Source: a virus. From it: 26,009 nucleotides of DNA. A program made the position numbers and the translations under genes. The stretch's first letter is position 1; each line of letters begins with the position of its first letter. The stretch covers positions 1 to 26,009 of the IMG/VR virus record IMGVR_UViG_3300035670_001127, one strand, 5' to 3'. Under the pieces are notes generated by a model. It searched no databases. It saw only the letters and a program-made list of their open reading frames with translations, and was not told the DNA's origin. This document shows positions 4,498 through 14,182 of this stretch, piece by piece.

Positions 4498-5538
4498 ATG
4501 GCAATTATCCGTAGCTATGTCAACGGTTTCGAACTAACCGACCTGACAGAAAACCTGATGCTGGTTCCCAACGTATGGGGTCTGAGCCAGCAACTGGGTG
4601 TCTTCGCCACTGAAGGCATCTCTCAAGAGACAGTTACTCTTGAAGTAATCAACAAGTCTTACGGCCTGTTGGAAGACCGTGTACGTGGCCAACGTGCCAT
4701 GCTGAACGGAGCTGACGGTCGCAAGCTGATGAGCTTCGCTGTTCCGCACTTCCCAGGTGATGACTACATCACTCCGCGTGATCTGATCGGTAAGCGTGCT
4801 TACGGTTCTCAGAACGCCGAGACTCTGGATGCTGTACGTGCCCGTAAGCTTGAGCGTATCCGTATGACTCACGCTGCTACTCTGGAAACAGCTCGTATGC
4901 ACACCATCACAACTGGTACTGCTTACGCTCCGCAAGGAACTGTTGCCTACAACTGGTACAGCGAATTCGGTGTAACTCGTAAAGAGCTGAGCTTCGAGCT
5001 GGACGTTGGTACAACTGATATCATCGCCAAGATTGAAGAAGTTATCGCTCACATCCAAGACAACGCTTTCACTGGAAGCATTGTTGGTGACATCTTCGCT
5101 ATGTGCTCTCCAGAGTTCTTCTCTGCGCTGATCGCACACCCAAGCATGAAAGAAGCGTACAAATACTACGCCTCTCAGCCGCAAATCCTGCGTGACCGTC
5201 TGCAAGCCAACGGCTTCGATGCTCGCTACCGTGAGTTCTACTTCGGTGGCGTTCTGTTCATCGAATACCGTGGTGGATTCAGCGGTGTTCCGGGTGCTGC
5301 AGTAACTCGTTACATCCCGTCCGGCGAAGCATACTTCATGCCTCGTGCAACTGGCGAGGAGTTCGTAACTTACTTCGGCCCAGCTGACAAGTTCGACCTT
5401 GTTGGTACTATCGGCCAAGAAGCTTACGCTTTCGAGTACGCTGATCCGAAGGGTGAGAAGATCACCATCGAAACCGAAACCAACTTCCTGAACGTCCTGC
5501 GTCGTCCGCAGCTGATTGTCAAAGCTACTTTGACCTAA
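4498..5538 (+). CDS. Major capsid protein (lambda gpE-like, Phage_cap_E family)
   Basis: This 346-residue protein is the main HK97-fold capsid subunit. It has the hallmarks of the Phage_cap_E family (PF03864): an early strand ending VPNVWGLSQQLG, TVTLEVINKSYGLLEDRVRG, the segment SFAVPHFPGDDYITPRDLIG, a long helix of Arg-rich repeats around residues 115-140, and a C-terminal part with GGFSGVPGAAVTRYIPSG and ETNFLNVLRRPQL. Length matches lambda E (about 341). The start has AGGAG at 4483-4487, ten bases before the ATG. Codon use is strikingly uniform and biased (Leu CTG, Arg CGT, Gly GGT), more so than in neighbouring genes, as expected for a highly expressed phage protein. A strong terminator hairpin follows the stop. 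Confidence 0.94.
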   Translation: MAIIRSYVNGFELTDLTENLMLVPNVWGLSQQLGVFATEGISQETVTLEVINKSYGLLEDRVRGQRAMLNGADGRKLMSFAVPHFPGDDYITPRDLIGKRAYGSQNAETLDAVRARKLERIRMTHAATLETARMHTITTGTAYAPQGTVAYNWYSEFGVTRKELSFELDVGTTDIIAKIEEVIAHIQDNAFTGSIVGDIFAMCSPEFFSALIAHPSMKEAYKYYASQPQILRDRLQANGFDARYREFYFGGVLFIEYRGGFSGVPGAAVTRYIPSGEAYFMPRATGEEFVTYFGPADKFDLVGTIGQEAYAFEYADPKGEKITIETETNFLNVLRRPQLIVKATLT

Positions 5539-5550
5539 GTTGGGCCAACT

Positions 5551-5581
5551 GAAGGGGGCCTCGTGCCCCCTTCTTTTGTTT
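5551..5581 (+). terminator. Intrinsic terminator after the major capsid gene
   Basis: A perfect 9-bp GC-rich stem (GAAGGGGGC with GCCCCCTTC) encloses the 5-base loop CTCGT and is followed by TTTTGTTT. It begins 13 bases after the capsid stop. The T-tract runs straight into the ribosome site (AAGGAGGG) of the next gene, so the downstream genes need read-through or an unseen promoter. Confidence 0.9.
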
Positions 5582-7473: not shown

Positions 7474-8760
7474 ATGACTCGTCTAACCGACATTATTACG
7501 ATCAACATCACCCGCGAAACAGCGGCTGTGTCCCAAACAAACTTTAACGTGCCCCTGTTCATCGCTGCTCACACAGCATGGAAAGAGCGTGCTCGTGAAT
7601 ACACCTCTCTTGAGGCTGTAGCCGATGATTTCGCAACATCTTCTAGCGTCTATGTTGCTGCAACTAAGCTCTTTGGACAGCAAATCCGTCCTACTAAGAT
7701 CGTAGTTGGTCGTCGTCAAATCCCTTCTGCAACTGTGACAGTTTCGACTGTAACTGATGCAACTTCGTATGTTCTGACAATCAACGATGTTGATTTCACT
7801 TTCACCAGCGGTGTTGCAACTACTGCAATCCTGATTGCTGAAGGTCTGAAAGATACTTACGATGTATCTCCTATCACAGGCATCACTGTGACCGACAACC
7901 TTGACGGAACTCTGACAGTAGCTTCGACTATTGACTGGTCTATCAAAGTTGGTGCAGGAATGACCCTGACTACAACAGCACCTACCGAGTCTTGGACCGA
8001 CAGCCTAGAAGCTGTTCAAAGCGCCAACGATACTTGGTATGCTCTGACTGTAGAAGACCACACTGAAGCGACTATTCTGGCACTTGCTGGAGCAATCGAA
8101 GCTAAGAAGAAAATCTACGGAACTTCTAGCTCTGACGTTACTATCAAGAGCGGAAGCACTACTGACACATTCAGCAAACTCCAAGACCTTGGATATCAGC
8201 GTACCTTCGGTATCTGGTCTGCCAATGCCAACACTGAGTTCCCTGAGTGTGCTCTGATCGGATACCAGCTGCAAGAGCGTCCGGGTTCTAACACATGGGC
8301 CTACAAGTCTCTGAGCGGTGTCACTGTAAGCACCCTGTCTGACACAGAAGCTAGCAACATCAAACTGAAAAACGGAACTACCTACGAGAATGTTGGTGGC
8401 CTGAACGTAACTGTCGGAGCCAAGATGTTCGGTGGAGAGTGGATTGACGTTATGGTCTTCGTTGACTGGCTGGAAGCTCGCCTACGTGAGCGTATCTGGT
8501 TCCGTCTGGCTAACAGCAAGAAGATTCCTTACACCCAAGCCGGTGCAACTATTCTGGAAACAGAAGTACGTGCTCAGCTGCGTGAAGGTATCCGTGTTGG
8601 TGGTCTGGCTGACAGCCCAGCTCCTATCGTCAACGTCCCTGACGTTACAACGATTGCTCCGAACCTACGTGCTCAACGTATCTTCGACGGCATCGAGTTT
8701 GAAGCCCGCCTAGCCGGTGCTATTCACTTCGTGTCTATCGCTGGTCGCGTTACCGTCTAA
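7474..8760 (+). CDS. Contractile tail sheath protein (DUF3383 type)
   Basis: This 428-residue protein forms the contractile outer tail. The C-terminal half is diagnostic of DUF3383 sheaths: KMFGGEWIDVMVFVDWLEAR, RERIWFRLANSKKIPYTQAG, a conserved helix ILETEVRAQLREGIRVGGL, and an ending that returns to the core fold. The middle part (residues about 85-165) is a Thr-rich immunoglobulin-like insertion with TYVL/TLTVAST strands, common as a surface domain in this family. The ribosome site TTAGGAG lies seven bases upstream of the ATG. Codon bias is strong, like that of the capsid gene. A terminator hairpin follows the stop directly. This gene fixes the phage as contractile-tailed. Confidence 0.92.
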   Translation: MTRLTDIITINITRETAAVSQTNFNVPLFIAAHTAWKERAREYTSLEAVADDFATSSSVYVAATKLFGQQIRPTKIVVGRRQIPSATVTVSTVTDATSYVLTINDVDFTFTSGVATTAILIAEGLKDTYDVSPITGITVTDNLDGTLTVASTIDWSIKVGAGMTLTTTAPTESWTDSLEAVQSANDTWYALTVEDHTEATILALAGAIEAKKKIYGTSSSDVTIKSGSTTDTFSKLQDLGYQRTFGIWSANANTEFPECALIGYQLQERPGSNTWAYKSLSGVTVSTLSDTEASNIKLKNGTTYENVGGLNVTVGAKMFGGEWIDVMVFVDWLEARLRERIWFRLANSKKIPYTQAGATILETEVRAQLREGIRVGGLADSPAPIVNVPDVTTIAPNLRAQRIFDGIEFEARLAGAIHFVSIAGRVTV

Positions 8761-8800: not shown

Positions 8801-9322
8801 ATGGCTTCTACAACTCGTCTAGCCACTTACGCTCCGAACGATGTAACCATTGTTGTTACTCAAGAGAGCACAGGTATGTCCCACATTATCGGTGGGTTTA
8901 GCGAAGATGCGATTGTAACGATTGATCGTAACGCAGATACATTCACACTGTATACTGGTGCAGACAACACTAACACTCGTATCTACAACGCAAACACTTC
9001 TGGCACAATCACTCTGTCTCTGCAGCAAACATCGGCATCTAACGATATCCTGATGGGACTGTACGAGCAAGACCGCACAAGCCGTAATGGCCTGTTCTCT
9101 ATCCGTGTGGTAGACAACAGCGGACGTTCTGGTTACTTCTCTGAAGAAGCCTACATCGGTGTTGTTCCGGGCTCTGCGTTTGCAAACTCTATGCAGACAC
9201 GCGATTGGGTTATCCACGCGCCGCTGCTTGACACATCCATTGGTGGAAACACTATTCTGTCTCCTGAAGACGCAGCGGCCCTTGGTCAGCTGGGTGTTCA
9301 AGTCGCAGATCGTTGGCTGTAA
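8801..9322 (+). CDS. Tail tube protein, copy 1 (DUF3277-like)
   Basis: This 173-residue protein is the best candidate for the main inner tail tube. It carries the DUF3277-type pattern: YAPNDVTIVV at the N-terminus, then DAIVTIDRNADTFTLYTGAD, TLSLQQTSASNDIL, an Asp-x-Ser-Gly turn, and FANSMQTRDWVIHA near the C-terminus. It directly follows the sheath, as is usual, and is itself followed by a terminator. Two further genes downstream share the same motifs at the same spacing, so the tube gene has been duplicated at least twice. Strong codon bias supports this copy being the most highly expressed of the three. The ribosome site is AGAGGAA, nine bases upstream. Confidence 0.88.
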   Translation: MASTTRLATYAPNDVTIVVTQESTGMSHIIGGFSEDAIVTIDRNADTFTLYTGADNTNTRIYNANTSGTITLSLQQTSASNDILMGLYEQDRTSRNGLFSIRVVDNSGRSGYFSEEAYIGVVPGSAFANSMQTRDWVIHAPLLDTSIGGNTILSPEDAAALGQLGVQVADRWL

Positions 9323-9326
9323 TTCG

Positions 9327-9358
9327 AAAAGGGGCGTATTCATTTACGCCCCTTTTTT
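9327..9358 (+). terminator. Intrinsic terminator after tube copy 1
   Basis: An 8-bp perfect stem GGGGCGTA/TACGCCCC (9331-9338 with 9345-9352) has loop TTCATT. It is extended outward by AAAA pairing with TTTT, and the run of six T forms both the outer stem and the T-tract. It starts about five bases after the tube stop. The A-run on the left arm would also give a T-tract on the opposite strand. Confidence 0.9.
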
Positions 9359-9375
9359 CGTATGGAGGATTTTAA

Positions 9376-9882
9376 ATGGCACTATACACATATTCACCAA
9401 CTGACGTAATCGTCTCCTTGTCTGGGCTGCACACAGTTACTGGATATGTGGACGGTACATTCGTTAAAATCGTCAAGAACATGCGTCCCTTTGAACAGCA
9501 AAGAGCTATGGACGGGACTCGTGAAAGACTCTATCACGATGACGATGGATACAGAGTTGAACTGACGTTGGCTCAAAGTAGCCCAACAAACAACATTCTC
9601 TCTGTATTGCACAACATCGACGTTGTGACTCGCATGATGAAGTTCCCGATGATGATCAAAGATACTCGCGGACAAACAAGCTTCTTCAGTGCGACAACAT
9701 GGATTGAAGGCATTCCAGATGTTACCTTCTCTAATGGCATGGAAACCCGTACTTGGGTGTTCGGATGTGCCGAGGCTGCCCTGACTATCGGTGGCAACGG
9801 AGAGACTTCTGGTGTCGAGGATGCGCTGCTGCTTGGCTCTAGCGTACTTCCTACACTGAAACAATTCGGCTTGCTGGGGTGA
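9376..9882 (+). CDS. Tail tube-like protein, paralogue 2
   Basis: This 168-residue protein shares the tube motif set with the gene before it: YSPTDVIVSL near the start, LAQSSPTNNIL in the middle, DTRGQTSFF and FSNGMETRTWVF near the end. Identity outside these motifs is low, so the duplication is old. The role could be a tube-initiator ring, a tail-tip adaptor or a tube variant used near the neck or baseplate; sequence alone does not decide. The start ATG has GGAGG at 9364-9368, seven bases upstream. It lies after a strong terminator, so its transcript level should be lower than that of copy 1, which fits a low-copy ring rather than a main tube. Three bases separate its stop from the next ATG. 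Confidence 0.72.
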   Translation: MALYTYSPTDVIVSLSGLHTVTGYVDGTFVKIVKNMRPFEQQRAMDGTRERLYHDDDGYRVELTLAQSSPTNNILSVLHNIDVVTRMMKFPMMIKDTRGQTSFFSATTWIEGIPDVTFSNGMETRTWVFGCAEAALTIGGNGETSGVEDALLLGSSVLPTLKQFGLLG

Positions 9883-9885
9883 TCT

Positions 9886-10440
9886 ATGGCAGTATTGACA
9901 TATTCGCCTTCTGATGTTAAAATCGTTATCTCTGGTTATACACTGACCGGAGTAAACTCTGTCACCCTTTCGTGGAACACAGCCACCTTCACAATTCGAA
10001 GAGGCATCCGTGGAAACCACACTCGCGTATTCAACCGCGACCTCAGCGCAACGCTGAACATCGAGGTTCTACAAACCTCTGTAACGAATGATGTTCTGTT
10101 CCAGATTCTCGCACAAGACCGTACAAAGAAAACAGCTCGTATCGACCTTGTGTTCGCAGACGTATCTGGGCGTAGCTTGCTGCAGAGCCAAGAAGCTTAC
10201 GTATCTACTCTCCCTGAAATTGCCTACTCTAACGGGTTCAACACTCGTATGTGGACTATCGAAATCCTCAACGTAACTGATGGGGCTATCACAGGGGCTG
10301 GTGCTCAATCTTCTGATCTGCTGTCTAGCACATTCGGAACTGACCTTCTCAACAACATTACTGGTCTTGCAACAGATGCTGTCGATGCAGTTGGAGGCTT
10401 GGCTTCTGACGCAGCTGACGCTGTTGGCGGACTATTCTAA
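9886..10440 (+). CDS. Tail tube-like protein, paralogue 3, with Gly-Ala repeat tail
   Basis: This 184-residue protein is a third member of the local tube family: YSPSDVKIVI, LQTSVTNDVLFQIL, DVSGRSLLQSQEAYV and YSNGFNTRMWTIE occur in the same order as in copies 1 and 2. It is closer to copy 1 in the middle segment (LxQDRT follows the QTS motif in both) than to copy 2. The C-terminal 35 residues are unusual. They contain an 11-residue direct repeat, ATDAVDAVGGL then ASDAADAVGGL, ending in Phe, a small amphipathic or glycine-zipper-like tail absent from the other two. The gene follows copy 2 after three bases and is likely co-translated. Function as a minor ring or tube-tip component is inference. 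Confidence 0.7.
   Translation: MAVLTYSPSDVKIVISGYTLTGVNSVTLSWNTATFTIRRGIRGNHTRVFNRDLSATLNIEVLQTSVTNDVLFQILAQDRTKKTARIDLVFADVSGRSLLQSQEAYVSTLPEIAYSNGFNTRMWTIEILNVTDGAITGAGAQSSDLLSSTFGTDLLNNITGLATDAVDAVGGLASDAADAVGGLF
10369..10437 (+). repeat. Two-copy 11-residue repeat in tube paralogue 3
   Basis: The C-terminus encodes two adjacent copies of A-[TS]-D-A-[VA]-D-A-V-G-G-L (33 bp each) and a final Phe. The two DNA copies have diverged at many third positions (GATGCTGTCGATGC against GACGCAGCTGACGC), so the repeat is maintained at the protein level. Confidence 0.75.
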
Positions 10441-10450
10441 GGAGTGAAAT

Positions 10451-10813
10451 ATGATTTCTCAAAAAACAGTAACAATCAAAGATGACGTGTACATGATCAC
10501 TCAGCTTCCGGCTAGCAAAGGTATTCGCGTACTGAAGCAGCTTGGTAAGCTGATCGGTCCAGCACTTCCGTCTTACCGTGAAGCAGGACTGAGCGGTGCT
10601 ATCGGCGCTCTGTTCGATAACATCGACTCTGTTGATGTTGAATCGCTAATCCGTGAACTGGCGACTAGCGCCACCAAGGGAAGCGTAGCGATCAACTACG
10701 ATATGGAGTTCGCTGGCGAATATGACAAGCTCTTCATGCTTGTGCAGGAAGTTGTTGAATTCAACTTCGGATCGGTTTTTACGATGCTCGGTTCCGAAGA
10801 GACTCTGCCGTAA
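10451..10813 (+). CDS. Tail assembly chaperone, short form (gpG-like)
   Basis: This 120-residue protein lies directly before the tape measure gene, where phages encode the chaperone that coats the tape measure during tail assembly. It opens with the pattern of small phage tail chaperones (KTVTIKDDVYMITQLPASKG) and continues as a helical domain, with no catalytic or membrane features. The ribosome site AAGGAG is four bases or so before the ATG. The zero-frame product ends at TAA 10811-10813. The sequence just before that stop contains a slippery GGTTTTT run, after which the -1 frame is open for 257 more bases, giving a longer G-T-type fusion. The short form is expected to be in excess. Confidence 0.78.
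   Translation: MISQKTVTIKDDVYMITQLPASKGIRVLKQLGKLIGPALPSYREAGLSGAIGALFDNIDSVDVESLIRELATSATKGSVAINYDMEFAGEYDKLFMLVQEVVEFNFGSVFTMLGSEETLP
10774..10780 (+). promoter_or_regulatory. Probable -1 ribosomal frameshift site
   Basis: Zero-frame codons read TCG GTT TTT ACG. The TTT codon at 10778-10780 can slip back by one base onto TTT, after which the -1 frame reads TAC GAT GCT. The -1 frame is closed by TGA at 10756-10758 and the zero frame by TAA at 10811-10813, so the shift must fall in a 50-base window, and this T-run is the only good slippery tract in it. The heptamer G GTT TTT is not the canonical XXXYYYZ, which lowers certainty. Confidence 0.6.
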
Positions 10814-11070
10814 GTCAACCAGCCTCGGGATCGGGCTCTATTGTAGCGCCGGTTGACCCAAAGACTCAACGCCTGCAAAAAGAGTTCTCGCAAGACTTCG
10901 ACTTGTTTCTGGTAGTCACCAGCGAGTTGAAGCTTGCAACTCTTCACGAACTTCAGACTATCTACAACACACAAGATTTCTACGATCTGCTAGAGATTAT
11001 CGAAGTTGACCGAGAACTTCGTGCGATTGCAGAAGCTAGAGCTAAAATGGAACAGGCCAATAACCACTGA
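10780..11070 (+). CDS. Frameshifted extension of tail assembly chaperone (gpGT-like T domain)
   Basis: This -1 frame encodes about 96 residues to TGA at 11068-11070. It starts with a Pro/Ser/Gly-rich linker (SQPASGSGSIVAPVDP) and then a helical acidic domain, EFSQDFDLFLVVTSELKLAT through EIIEVDRELRAIAEARAKME. No ATG, GTG or TTG with a ribosome site precedes the domain, so it is most likely made only as the C-terminal part of a roughly 206-residue fusion with the chaperone at 10451. This matches the lambda G/GT arrangement, in which the T domain bridges the tape measure and tube protein. The stop lies eight bases before the tape measure ATG. It fills what would otherwise be an unexplained 260-base gap. 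Confidence 0.72.
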   Translation, partial: YDARFRRDSAVSQPASGSGSIVAPVDPKTQRLQKEFSQDFDLFLVVTSELKLATLHELQTIYNTQDFYDLLEIIEVDRELRAIAEARAKMEQANNH

Positions 11071-11078
11071 GGTATGTG

Positions 11079-13385
11079 ATGGCAGGTGAAAAAACTATTG
11101 CTACGTTGGTCGGTAAACTTCGCTTTGAAGCTGATAACCGCCCACTAAAAACTTTCGAAGCAAACCTCGACAGAGTGTTTAAGAAAGTTGACAGCCTAAG
11201 TCAACTTGCCGGAAAGAAAATCATGCTGAAGGTTGGGCTTGATACCAAGTCTCTGGCTGACAATCTGCAAGTTGCAAGAAATGCAAAGCTGGTATTGAAG
11301 AATGTTGGGGTTTCGAATGAAGCCCTGACAGCCACAGTGAATAAAATCTCTGAGAAGCTTTCGACTGCCAGAATCAAAATTGAAGATGTGAAAATTCCAA
11401 TCGCATCTCTCAATGCCCAAAAGAAACTAATGCGTAGCCTGCTTGAGTCTACCACTATCGACCTACCAGTTGATGTGAAGTTGAAAAAAGCTGACGCCGC
11501 TCTGCGTGCTTGGAAAAAGCGCACAGAAGAGAAATTCAAGTTGTACTTGTCTGCGGACATCTCGAAGCACAAGTTCTACCAGAACGTCAAAGCTTCCGTG
11601 GAGTACGTGACAGGCAAGATCGGTACAATGCGCTTTGAGCCTAAGATTCAACTGAAGGTTGACCGTGCAGCTCTCCGCACAGAAATCAACACCGTACTGA
11701 AAGAGATTGAGCGACAAGCCAAGATCAAAATCCAGCTGACAGGAAACCTTGGAGGCGGTGGTGGCGGTGAAGGTGGCGCAGGAGGCCGCGTAGGAATGCG
11801 TCAGCACGCCCTTACTGGTGGGGTCGCTGGGGCAGCAGCCTCGTGGGGTAGAGGCTTCGTGCCGGGCCTTGGAGGGGCCTTTGCGGTGTCTCAACTGAAC
11901 CGCATCAACCAAGAGCTTCAAGCTCAGCAGTTGGCTATGACAGCTGTAATGGGAAGCCCGGAGGCTGGCAAGGAACAACAAGCTTGGTTCAGCAACCTAG
12001 CACAACAACTTGGTCTGCATGAACGTGCGACTATGCCGTCTTACACCAAGATGCTTGCATCTGGTCTGACCTCTGGATTCCAGACAGAAGAAGTTCAAAA
12101 CATCTTCACTGGTATCTCCTCTTATGGCCGTACAATGGGTCTTGACTCTGAAGCGATGAAGGGCACCATGCGTGCTGTCGAGCAGATGATGAACAAAGGC
12201 CAGATCATGTCCGAAGAACTTAAAGGCCAGTTGGCCGAACGTGCTCCGGGTGTAATCTCTGCTATGGCTGAAGCTGCCGGATTTGGTACAGACTCTGACG
12301 CTGCTGCCAAACTCTTCAAAGCGATGGAGAATGGTGAAGTAAAATCCAAGGATGTTCTGGAGAAGTTCTCTGCCATCTTGCTCGAAAGAGCTAAGCAGGG
12401 CGGTGCTCTTGAGAAGGCGATGAAGTCTACTGCTGCCGAGCAACAGAGATTCAACACAGCCTTCGACAAGACAGTTGTTGCATTCTCTGAGGGTGGCTTC
12501 GATAAAGCCATTGCTCGCTTCTTCAGAGAGATGACTGAGAACATGATGAAGAGCACAGGGGCTGCCAAGGGGTTGGGAGAAGCTTTCAACATCCTGATGC
12601 AACCTGTGTATGCCGTTATTCGTTTGTTCGGTGATCTTGGAAAGGCGACAGGTATTGTTGCTGAGAGATTGGGAGTTTCCCAAGGTAAGATCATGGCGTT
12701 TGGTGCTGCGGCACTATTCAACCTGACTCCACTCGGACGAATGGTAACGCTAATCTCCAGTCTAGCACTGGCGGTTGAAGACTTCGTAACCTACCTAGAA
12801 GGTGGTGAGAGCAAGTTCGGTAAGTGGTTTGAGTCGCTATCTCCTGATAAGCAAGAAAGACTCGAAGCTTTCGGAAGTGCTATGGCCAAATTGGCTGAGA
12901 ACGTCTTCAAGTTGGCTGACCTATCTCTTGAAGGTCTGAAGGGTTTGATCGATCTGATGGATAGTTCTGGTTTCGGTTGGGACGCTGTTGATCGTATTAC
13001 CAAGCTGGCCGAGGCATTCAACAAACTGGCTGACGCTATCTTCAAGCTGCGTAATGGTGATGCGTCCGGTATGAAGGACATTGCATCTCCTAACAACATG
13101 CTGGAGACACTTGGTACAGTTAACCCACTGGCTGGCGCCATCAACTTCTTCAAAGATGATTTTGCAGAAAGGTTGAACAAACCAACTACGCCGGAAGCTA
13201 TTGCACAAGACAAGGCACTTGCTGGTAAATCCATGATCCCAATGACCAATCAACAAACTATTCAACGAGTAGAGATTAGTGTCGATGGGTCTAAGAGCCC
13301 AGAGGAGACTGCTGGAGTTATCAAGAAAGCTCTGGATGATCTTATGCAGAAAACGAAAACCAACCTTGTAGAGGTTCGCAAATGA
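11079..13385 (+). CDS. Tail tape measure protein
   Basis: This 768-residue protein sets tail length and is ejected with the DNA. A GTG at 11076 precedes the ATG at 11079; GAGG at 11069-11072 is spaced for the ATG. Residues 1-210 are Lys-rich and partly repetitive. Residues about 222-238 form a Gly-rich hinge (GGGGGGEGGAGG). Residues about 245-450 resemble the tape_meas_nterm domain, with helices such as QLNRINQELQAQQLAMTAVM, MGLDSEAMKGTMRAVEQMMN and IMSEELKGQLAERAPGVISA. A hydrophobic stretch lies near residues 543-568 (LTPLGRMVTLISSLALAV) and could insert into a membrane. Length is short for a myovirus; at the usual 1.5 angstroms per residue it implies a tail of roughly 115 nm. Its 3' end overlaps the next gene by four bases (ATGA). 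Confidence 0.9.
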   Translation: MAGEKTIATLVGKLRFEADNRPLKTFEANLDRVFKKVDSLSQLAGKKIMLKVGLDTKSLADNLQVARNAKLVLKNVGVSNEALTATVNKISEKLSTARIKIEDVKIPIASLNAQKKLMRSLLESTTIDLPVDVKLKKADAALRAWKKRTEEKFKLYLSADISKHKFYQNVKASVEYVTGKIGTMRFEPKIQLKVDRAALRTEINTVLKEIERQAKIKIQLTGNLGGGGGGEGGAGGRVGMRQHALTGGVAGAAASWGRGFVPGLGGAFAVSQLNRINQELQAQQLAMTAVMGSPEAGKEQQAWFSNLAQQLGLHERATMPSYTKMLASGLTSGFQTEEVQNIFTGISSYGRTMGLDSEAMKGTMRAVEQMMNKGQIMSEELKGQLAERAPGVISAMAEAAGFGTDSDAAAKLFKAMENGEVKSKDVLEKFSAILLERAKQGGALEKAMKSTAAEQQRFNTAFDKTVVAFSEGGFDKAIARFFREMTENMMKSTGAAKGLGEAFNILMQPVYAVIRLFGDLGKATGIVAERLGVSQGKIMAFGAAALFNLTPLGRMVTLISSLALAVEDFVTYLEGGESKFGKWFESLSPDKQERLEAFGSAMAKLAENVFKLADLSLEGLKGLIDLMDSSGFGWDAVDRITKLAEAFNKLADAIFKLRNGDASGMKDIASPNNMLETLGTVNPLAGAINFFKDDFAERLNKPTTPEAIAQDKALAGKSMIPMTNQQTIQRVEISVDGSKSPEETAGVIKKALDDLMQKTKTNLVEVRK

Positions 13386-14182
13386 CAATCGCTATCAAAA
13401 GAGATAATGGAGATTTGCTGTGGTTTGATGCCGTCCTATCTATTGGACGGCAGTTCTCCGGTACAGTCTCTAAGCACCCTCTTGAGACTGGTGCTGTCGT
13501 AACCGACCACACTACAATCGACAACGAAGTGATCAACATGAGCGGCGTCCTTTCGGATGCCGACTTCAACCTTCGCCGTCCACTGATTGATGCACAACAA
13601 GCAACTGAGTTCGGACTGACAAATAAGCAGTTCGTGAACAACACTCCAGTAACTTACGATGACGCATCTGGTGACTCTGTATACCAGAACATCATGATCA
13701 CAGACAACGCTGGGATCACTTCCTTCCTTCCAGAATCTATCGGGCAGTTCTTCGGAACACAAGCTCCGACAGTCGAAGTTGGAGAGAGATTCCTAGCGAA
13801 GCCTGCACTAGCTGTTCAGGCAGACCTGATTGCAATGTTCAACAACCGAGAGCAGTTCACTTTGCTGGACTTCATCGGAGAGACGATCAGTGCAGCTTAC
13901 ACAAACTGTGTCATGACTTCGCTAAGCTTCTCGGAAGATGCAGACAGCGGTGATGCTGTGTATCCGGTTATGACTATTGAGAGAGTCAAGTATGCCACTT
14001 CTACTTCGGTGCGTATCAAGACTCGTGTTGCTGAATCTGTGTCTAAGAAGGCTGCAACACAGCAGAACAAAGGTAAGCAAGCTGCAGCCGGAGGTACAAC
14101 TTCTGATGCAACTCTTAACCAAGATGAACCACAAAAGAACTCTGAAAAAACTAGAGTAAGTGTTCTAGCTGGAGGTCTGTAA
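13382..14182 (+). CDS. Dit-like / distal baseplate protein
   Basis: This 266-residue protein probably forms the ring joining tube and baseplate. The N-terminal domain has the Dit-like pattern found after tape measures in contractile phages: LLWFDAVLSIGRQFSGTVSK, then HPLETGAVVTDHTTIDNEVI and INMSGVLSDADFNL. The middle holds a second beta-rich part (QFTLLDFIGETISAAYTNCV, SLSFSEDADSGDAVYPVMTI). The last 50 residues are Lys/Ala/Gln-rich and probably disordered. The start overlaps the tape measure stop (ATGA) with GAGG at 13371-13374 upstream, and the stop overlaps the next start (TAATG). The family call is good from order and pattern. Confidence 0.78.
   Translation: MTIAIKRDNGDLLWFDAVLSIGRQFSGTVSKHPLETGAVVTDHTTIDNEVINMSGVLSDADFNLRRPLIDAQQATEFGLTNKQFVNNTPVTYDDASGDSVYQNIMITDNAGITSFLPESIGQFFGTQAPTVEVGERFLAKPALAVQADLIAMFNNREQFTLLDFIGETISAAYTNCVMTSLSFSEDADSGDAVYPVMTIERVKYATSTSVRIKTRVAESVSKKAATQQNKGKQAAAGGTTSDATLNQDEPQKNSEKTRVSVLAGGL

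What the first reader, a model, noticed from the sequence alone, without database searches (positions are those of the whole stretch)
8801..10440. Three tandem tail-tube paralogues in one contractile phage
Seen directly: three consecutive genes share the same ordered motifs (Tyr-x-Pro-x-Asp-Val at the N-terminus; Ser-x-x-Asn-[DN]-[IV]-Leu in the middle; a late Asn-x-[MF]-x-Thr-Arg-x-Trp) with low identity elsewhere. Known: contractile phages usually need one main tube protein plus smaller ring proteins that share its fold. Inference: copies 2 and 3 are tube-like rings specialised for the neck or tail tip, or the tube is built of more than one subunit. A strong terminator after copy 1 would lower expression of copies 2 and 3, which fits a high-copy tube plus low-copy rings.
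Basis: partly seen in the sequence, partly recalled or inferred. Interest (0 to 1): 0.62.

Follow-up and report, generated by a model that had tools for sequence, protein, structure and literature searches.

The report
One phage tube, two tail-tip rings
This phage carries three related tail-tube genes side by side: one builds the long inner tube of the contractile tail and the other two most likely build one six-copy ring each where the tube meets the tail tip, an arrangement already reported for the whole virus family and largely visible in deposited structures.

Summary
ORFs 8801-9322, 9376-9882 and 9886-10440 are paralogues (27-36% identity, E 1e-18 to 1e-25; all hit PHROG 280), and the three motifs are present in order. 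Evidence: (i) close orthologues of copies 2 and 3 (gp78, gp79; E 3e-65, 1.5e-44) are 12 chains each over PDB entries 9zd7/9zd8, together with the baseplate proteins gp83, gp84, gp85 and gp88, while no PDB chain is an orthologue of copy 1; (ii) published virion proteomics of the relative PhiPsa374 gives 7.57e8, 4.56e6 and 1.56e7 for copies 1, 2 and 3; (iii) a terminator hairpin follows copy 1 in 57 of 69 three-copy loci and follows copies 2 and 3 in none; (iv) AlphaFold models of copies 2 and 3 match solved tail tubes. It is not new: Dec 2025 work on phage Adele reports the triplicated locus in all Vandenendeviridae analysed, and a GenBank record already labels 'tail tube protein I/II/III'. What seems unstated in the papers found is the assignment of copies 2 and 3 to the baseplate and the conserved terminator step.

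The parts
8801..9322 (+). Copy 1 (C1): main tail-tube protein, PHROG 280 / PF11681 KPP10_Orf10
   Evidence: orthologue of KPP10 ORF10 and of PhiPsa374 gp068, the third most abundant virion protein
9326..9357 (+). Intrinsic terminator hairpin after C1 (13 pairs, T run inside and after the 3' arm)
   Evidence: fold -21.2 kcal/mol, z -5.6; position conserved in 57 of 69 loci; annotated from RNA-Seq in PAK_P3
9376..9882 (+). Copy 2 (C2): low-copy tube-fold ring protein of the tail tip, orthologue of gp78 of PDB 9zd7/9zd8
   Evidence: phmmer E 3e-65; AlphaFold model matched to tail tubes
9886..10440 (+). Copy 3 (C3): low-copy tube-fold ring protein of the tail tip, orthologue of gp79 of PDB 9zd7/9zd8, with a C-terminal helical tail
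   Evidence: phmmer E 1.5e-44; AlphaFold model matched to tail tubes
7474..8760 (+). Tail sheath (DUF3383, PHROG 205), orthologue of gp76 in PDB 9zdk
13382..14182 (+). Dit-like baseplate protein, orthologue of gp83, in the same PDB entries as the C2 and C3 orthologues

Best explanation
The three genes are products of ancient tandem duplication of a tail-tube gene. C1 is the main tube protein and stacks as hexameric rings along the tail. C2 and C3 keep the tube fold, and each forms a single hexameric ring at the tube's baseplate end, between the Dit-like baseplate ring and the first C1 ring, where they act as an adaptor and starting platform for tube polymerisation, as gp48 and gp54 do in T4. 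A terminator directly after C1 lets most transcripts stop there, so that the high-copy sheath and tube are made in excess over the low-copy rings and baseplate genes downstream. Shown: the paralogy, the fold of C2 and C3 (predicted), presence of the C2 and C3 orthologues in solved baseplate entries, low abundance in virions of a relative, and the conserved terminator position. Inferred: that each ring is one hexamer, the position between tube and Dit-like ring, the role in starting the tube, and that the terminator sets the stoichiometry. The order of the two rings is not determined.
For: Orthologues of C2 and C3 have 12 chains each over two entries, 9zd7 and 9zd8, which also hold orthologues of the Dit-like protein (12 chains), plug/spacer (6 in each entry), hub (6 over two entries) and wedge of this window. 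The gp78 sequence is at least 99% identical to that of 122 phage records; those listed are P. aeruginosa phages of 78-92 kb. Neither window C1 nor the PAK_P1 C1 finds an orthologue in the PDB. PhiPsa374 virions: gp068 (C1) 7.57e8, gp069 (C2) 4.56e6, gp070 (C3) 1.56e7 by TOP3, with 30 tail disks. Three clades with fixed order in 69 distinct loci. Terminator after C1 in 57 of 69 loci, after C2 or C3 in 0 of 69, background 2.9%. Predicted folds match Pam3, Sf14, PhiTE and Bas63 tubes.
Against: The coordinates of 9zd7/9zd8 could not be read, so ring order and contacts are unknown and 'six per entry' is inferred from chain totals. The C1 orthologue is in no PDB entry, so its tube role rests on proteomics and position. 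TOP3 values for C2 and C3 rest on 4 and 5 peptides. Some three-copy loci lack a terminator-like hairpin after C1 (12 of 69), so it is not strictly required.
Confidence: 0.9

Rival explanations
1. C2 is the main tube (with one ring modelled in the baseplate map), C3 a single initiator ring and C1 a ring elsewhere, for example at the neck.
For: Single-tube relatives score best with the C2 profile; the baseplate entries hold C2 but no C1.
Against: PhiPsa374 proteomics makes the C1 orthologue about 166 times more abundant than C2; the terminator lies after C1; the neck entry 9zbs holds the tail terminator but no C1 orthologue; in the tree C2 is one of three sister clades, not the ancestor.
Confidence: 0.04
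2. The tube is a heteropolymer of all three proteins along its length.
For: C2 and C3 share the tube fold and all three genes are adjacent on one strand.
Against: Abundance ratios of about 1:1/166:1/49 in virions of a relative, and both minor proteins lie in baseplate entries.
Confidence: 0.02
3. One of C2 and C3 sits in the baseplate and the other also caps or lines the neck end of the tube.
For: Tube-fold proteins also serve as tube-terminating caps in other systems (matches to the AFP and PVC caps).
Against: Both orthologues are in the same two baseplate entries and not in the neck entry that holds the tail terminator.
Confidence: 0.04

Closest known systems
Triplicated tail-tube locus TTP1-TTP3 of Vandenendeviridae (phage Adele, PMC12846349)
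   Same: Three adjacent tube paralogues of 24-29% identity in Adele, near-identical predicted folds, three separate clades, all family genomes analysed
   Different: No difference in kind; the paper calls the three putatively specialised and positioned differently but does not assign positions
Baseplate structures 9zd7/9zd8 (gp78, gp79, gp83, gp84, gp85, gp88), whose gp78 is at least 99% identical to 122 phage records, those listed being P. aeruginosa phages
   Same: Orthologues of C2, C3 and the window's baseplate genes
   Different: About 60% (C2, near full length) and 54% (C3, residues 3-137 only) identity to P. aeruginosa phage copies; the structure's publication was not found
T4 gp48 and gp54 (baseplate-tube junction) with gp19 (tube)
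   Same: Six copies each at the junction, platform for gp19 polymerisation
   Different: T4 proteins are 35-40 kDa against about 18 kDa; membership was not tested by sequence and T4 was not among the listed fold matches
Single-tube relatives PhiTE, Sf14/Sf17, phi92, Pam3
   Same: Same tube family and sheath family; phi92 and Sf17 share the gene order
   Different: One tube gene found in phi92 and Sf17; in PhiTE the ordinary tube protein is itself in the baseplate entry 9cuy

Membership tests
PHROG 280 / DUF3277 tail-tube family | Profile match over the whole domain | tested here: met
   PHROG 280 for all three at E 1e-35 to 2e-41; PF11681 above cutoff for copy 1 only
PHROG 280 / DUF3277 tail-tube family | Tail-tube fold | tested here: met
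   C2 and C3 models match Pam3, PhiTE, Sf14, Bas63 tubes, TM-score by target 0.74-0.87; C1 not modelled
Vandenendeviridae triplicated tube locus (TTP1-3) | Three adjacent paralogues between sheath and tail assembly chaperone, each in its own clade | tested here: met
T4 gp48/gp54-like baseplate tube rings (as a way of working) | Low-copy tube-fold rings located in the baseplate | tested here: met
   Orthologues in baseplate entries and low abundance in a relative's virions; not shown on this phage itself
T4 gp48/gp54 proteins (as a family) | Sequence homology to gp48 or gp54 | not tested
   No direct comparison was run; T4 chains do not appear among the top fold or sequence matches listed
T4 gp48/gp54-like baseplate tube rings (as a way of working) | Needed to start tube polymerisation | not testable with these tools
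   needs knockouts or assembly assays

The most novel reading that the evidence does not exclude
Vandenendeviridae and related Acinetobacter phages inserted two dedicated tube-fold rings at the tube-baseplate junction by duplicating their own tube gene, arriving independently at the T4 gp48/gp54 solution, while sister lineages with the same baseplate genes use the ordinary tube protein there; a terminator placed after the tube gene sets the ring-to-tube ratio.
Probability: 0.5. Interest if true: 0.4.

Novelty: new member of a known kind. Interest (0 to 1): 0.2.

Why it matters
It gives likely functions to two proteins left as 'virion structural' or 'hypothetical' in more than two hundred Pseudomonas phage records, and offers a clear case of a tube gene duplicated into junction rings, with close relatives that lack them for comparison. 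The locus itself is already described, so the gain is modest.

Tried and rejected
The multi-subunit tube and C2-as-main-tube readings were considered seriously, because single-tube relatives score best with the C2 profile and C1 is in no PDB entry; proteomics of PhiPsa374 and the tree went against both. The terminator scan tool missed the hairpin after C1, probably because the stem runs into the T run; folding and a custom scan found it. The promoter-like match at 9895-9923 (11 of 12) lies in the start of copy 3 and the region's count is no higher than in shuffles. Fold search did not show 9zd7 (library ends April 2026), and no paper naming 9zd7/9zd8/9zdk/9zbs was found. The quick tree has long branches for Acinetobacter phages, phi92 and Sf17, so their placement and the order of the duplications are unsure.

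Full report
Observation. The three ORFs are at 8801-9322, 9376-9882 and 9886-10440, after the sheath (7474-8760) and before the tail assembly chaperone (10451-10813). Pairwise identity is 27-36% with E-values of 2e-18 to 5e-25, and alignment scores are 2.7 to 3.4 times the best of 1000 shuffles. All three hit PHROG 280.

Which copy is which. Copy 1 (C1) is the orthologue of KPP10 ORF10 by position and Pfam name and of PhiPsa374 gp068. In PhiPsa374 virions, label-free TOP3 values are 1.89e9 for the sheath, 7.57e8 for gp068, 4.56e6 for gp069 and 1.56e7 for gp070 (PMC9796965); VCM locus tags tie gp067 and gp068 to the sheath and C1, and gp069 and gp070 follow in order. The authors proposed gp068 as the tube from abundance and a tail of 30 disks. 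C1 is thus about 166 and 49 times the level of C2 and C3; one ring in about 30 would predict about 30. The values for C2 and C3 rest on 4 and 5 peptides, but they fall among the other baseplate proteins (3e6 to 6e7).

Where C2 and C3 sit. C2 matches gp78 (E 3e-65) and C3 matches gp79 (E 1.5e-44) of PDB 9zd7 and 9zd8. Those entries also hold gp83 (Dit-like), gp84, gp85 (hub) and gp88 (wedge), all orthologous to the window's baseplate genes. The chain totals of 12 over two entries for gp78, gp79 and gp83 fit six each (inferred). The sheath orthologue is gp76 in 9zdk and the tail terminator's is in 9zbs. The C1 of PAK_P1, which should be nearly identical to that phage's gp77, finds no closer chain than gp78, so C1 is absent from these models. 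The gp78 sequence is at least 99% identical to 122 phage records; those listed are P. aeruginosa phages. I could not read entry titles or coordinates.

Fold. AlphaFold models from alignments of 34 and 33 sequences have mean pLDDT 81.7 (C2) and 79.1 (C3), with the uncertain part at the C-terminus. Best PDB matches of both are tail tubes of Bas63, PhiTE, Pam3 and Sf14. C1 was not modelled.

Conservation. In 69 distinct loci the three copies occur in the fixed order C1-C2-C3, and the tree gives one main clade per copy, with most single-tube proteins outside. Acinetobacter phages Herod, MD-2021a and Acibel004 also have a divergent third copy, and the Herod record already labels tail tube protein I, II and III. 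Single-tube relatives include phi92, Sf17, LIET2 and an Enterobacter phage.

Terminator. A hairpin with a T run follows C1 at 9326-9357 (-21.2 kcal/mol, z -5.6). A scan finds such a hairpin within 60 bases of the C1 stop in 57 of 69 loci, after C2 and C3 in 0 of 69, and in 2.9% of random windows (loci are related, so these are not independent). PAK_P3 carries an RNA-Seq-supported annotation there, and PAK_P4 and KIL2 an annotated terminator. Another hairpin lies in the window at 5551-5573, after the gene in the major capsid position, as in PAK_P4 and PAK_P3. Stepping expression down after the most abundant products is a reasonable inference; how much transcription reads through was not measured here.

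Verdict. The triplicated locus was published in December 2025 for all Vandenendeviridae analysed (PMC12846349). What I add is the placing of C2 and C3 at the baseplate rather than the neck, the link to virion abundance, and the conserved terminator.

Noticed in passing
window 10451-11070: Tail assembly chaperone with a GTTTTT slippery site in frame at 10775; the -1 frame from 10774 is open to 11070, as in the -1 frameshift reported for phage Adele. GTTTTT occurs within 480 bases after C3 in 47 of 68 loci.
   Followed up: partly
window 5551-5573: Terminator-like hairpin after the gene in the major capsid position (4498-5538), matching annotated terminators after the capsid gene in PAK_P3, PAK_P4 and KIL2.
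   Followed up: partly
L019 3311-5428: Acinetobacter phage MD-2021a has two adjacent genes matching the sheath family DUF3383 (E 1e-6, below Pfam's cutoff, and 2e-16) before its three tube genes.
   Followed up: no
L016 2401-5399 and L012 4604-5380: GIY-YIG endonuclease genes lie between sheath and C1 in KIL2 and PAK_P4; in KIL2 the sheath region is annotated as two ORFs, the second holding the DUF3383 match.
   Followed up: partly
L075 3552-4544: A 330-aa ORF of unknown kind is inserted between C2 and C3 in one metagenomic relative, possibly an endonuclease.
   Followed up: no
window 8801-10440, by comparison with PAK_P3 and PAK_P4: Relatives carry antisense RNAs annotated from RNA-Seq across the structural region, including C1-C3 in PAK_P4; in PAK_P3 they are mainly early transcripts. 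Not testable in the window.
   Followed up: no
window 9895-9923: Promoter-like match (TTGACA-17-TAAAAT, 11 of 12, TG before the second hexamer) inside the start of copy 3; probably a by-product of the conserved protein motif.
   Followed up: no
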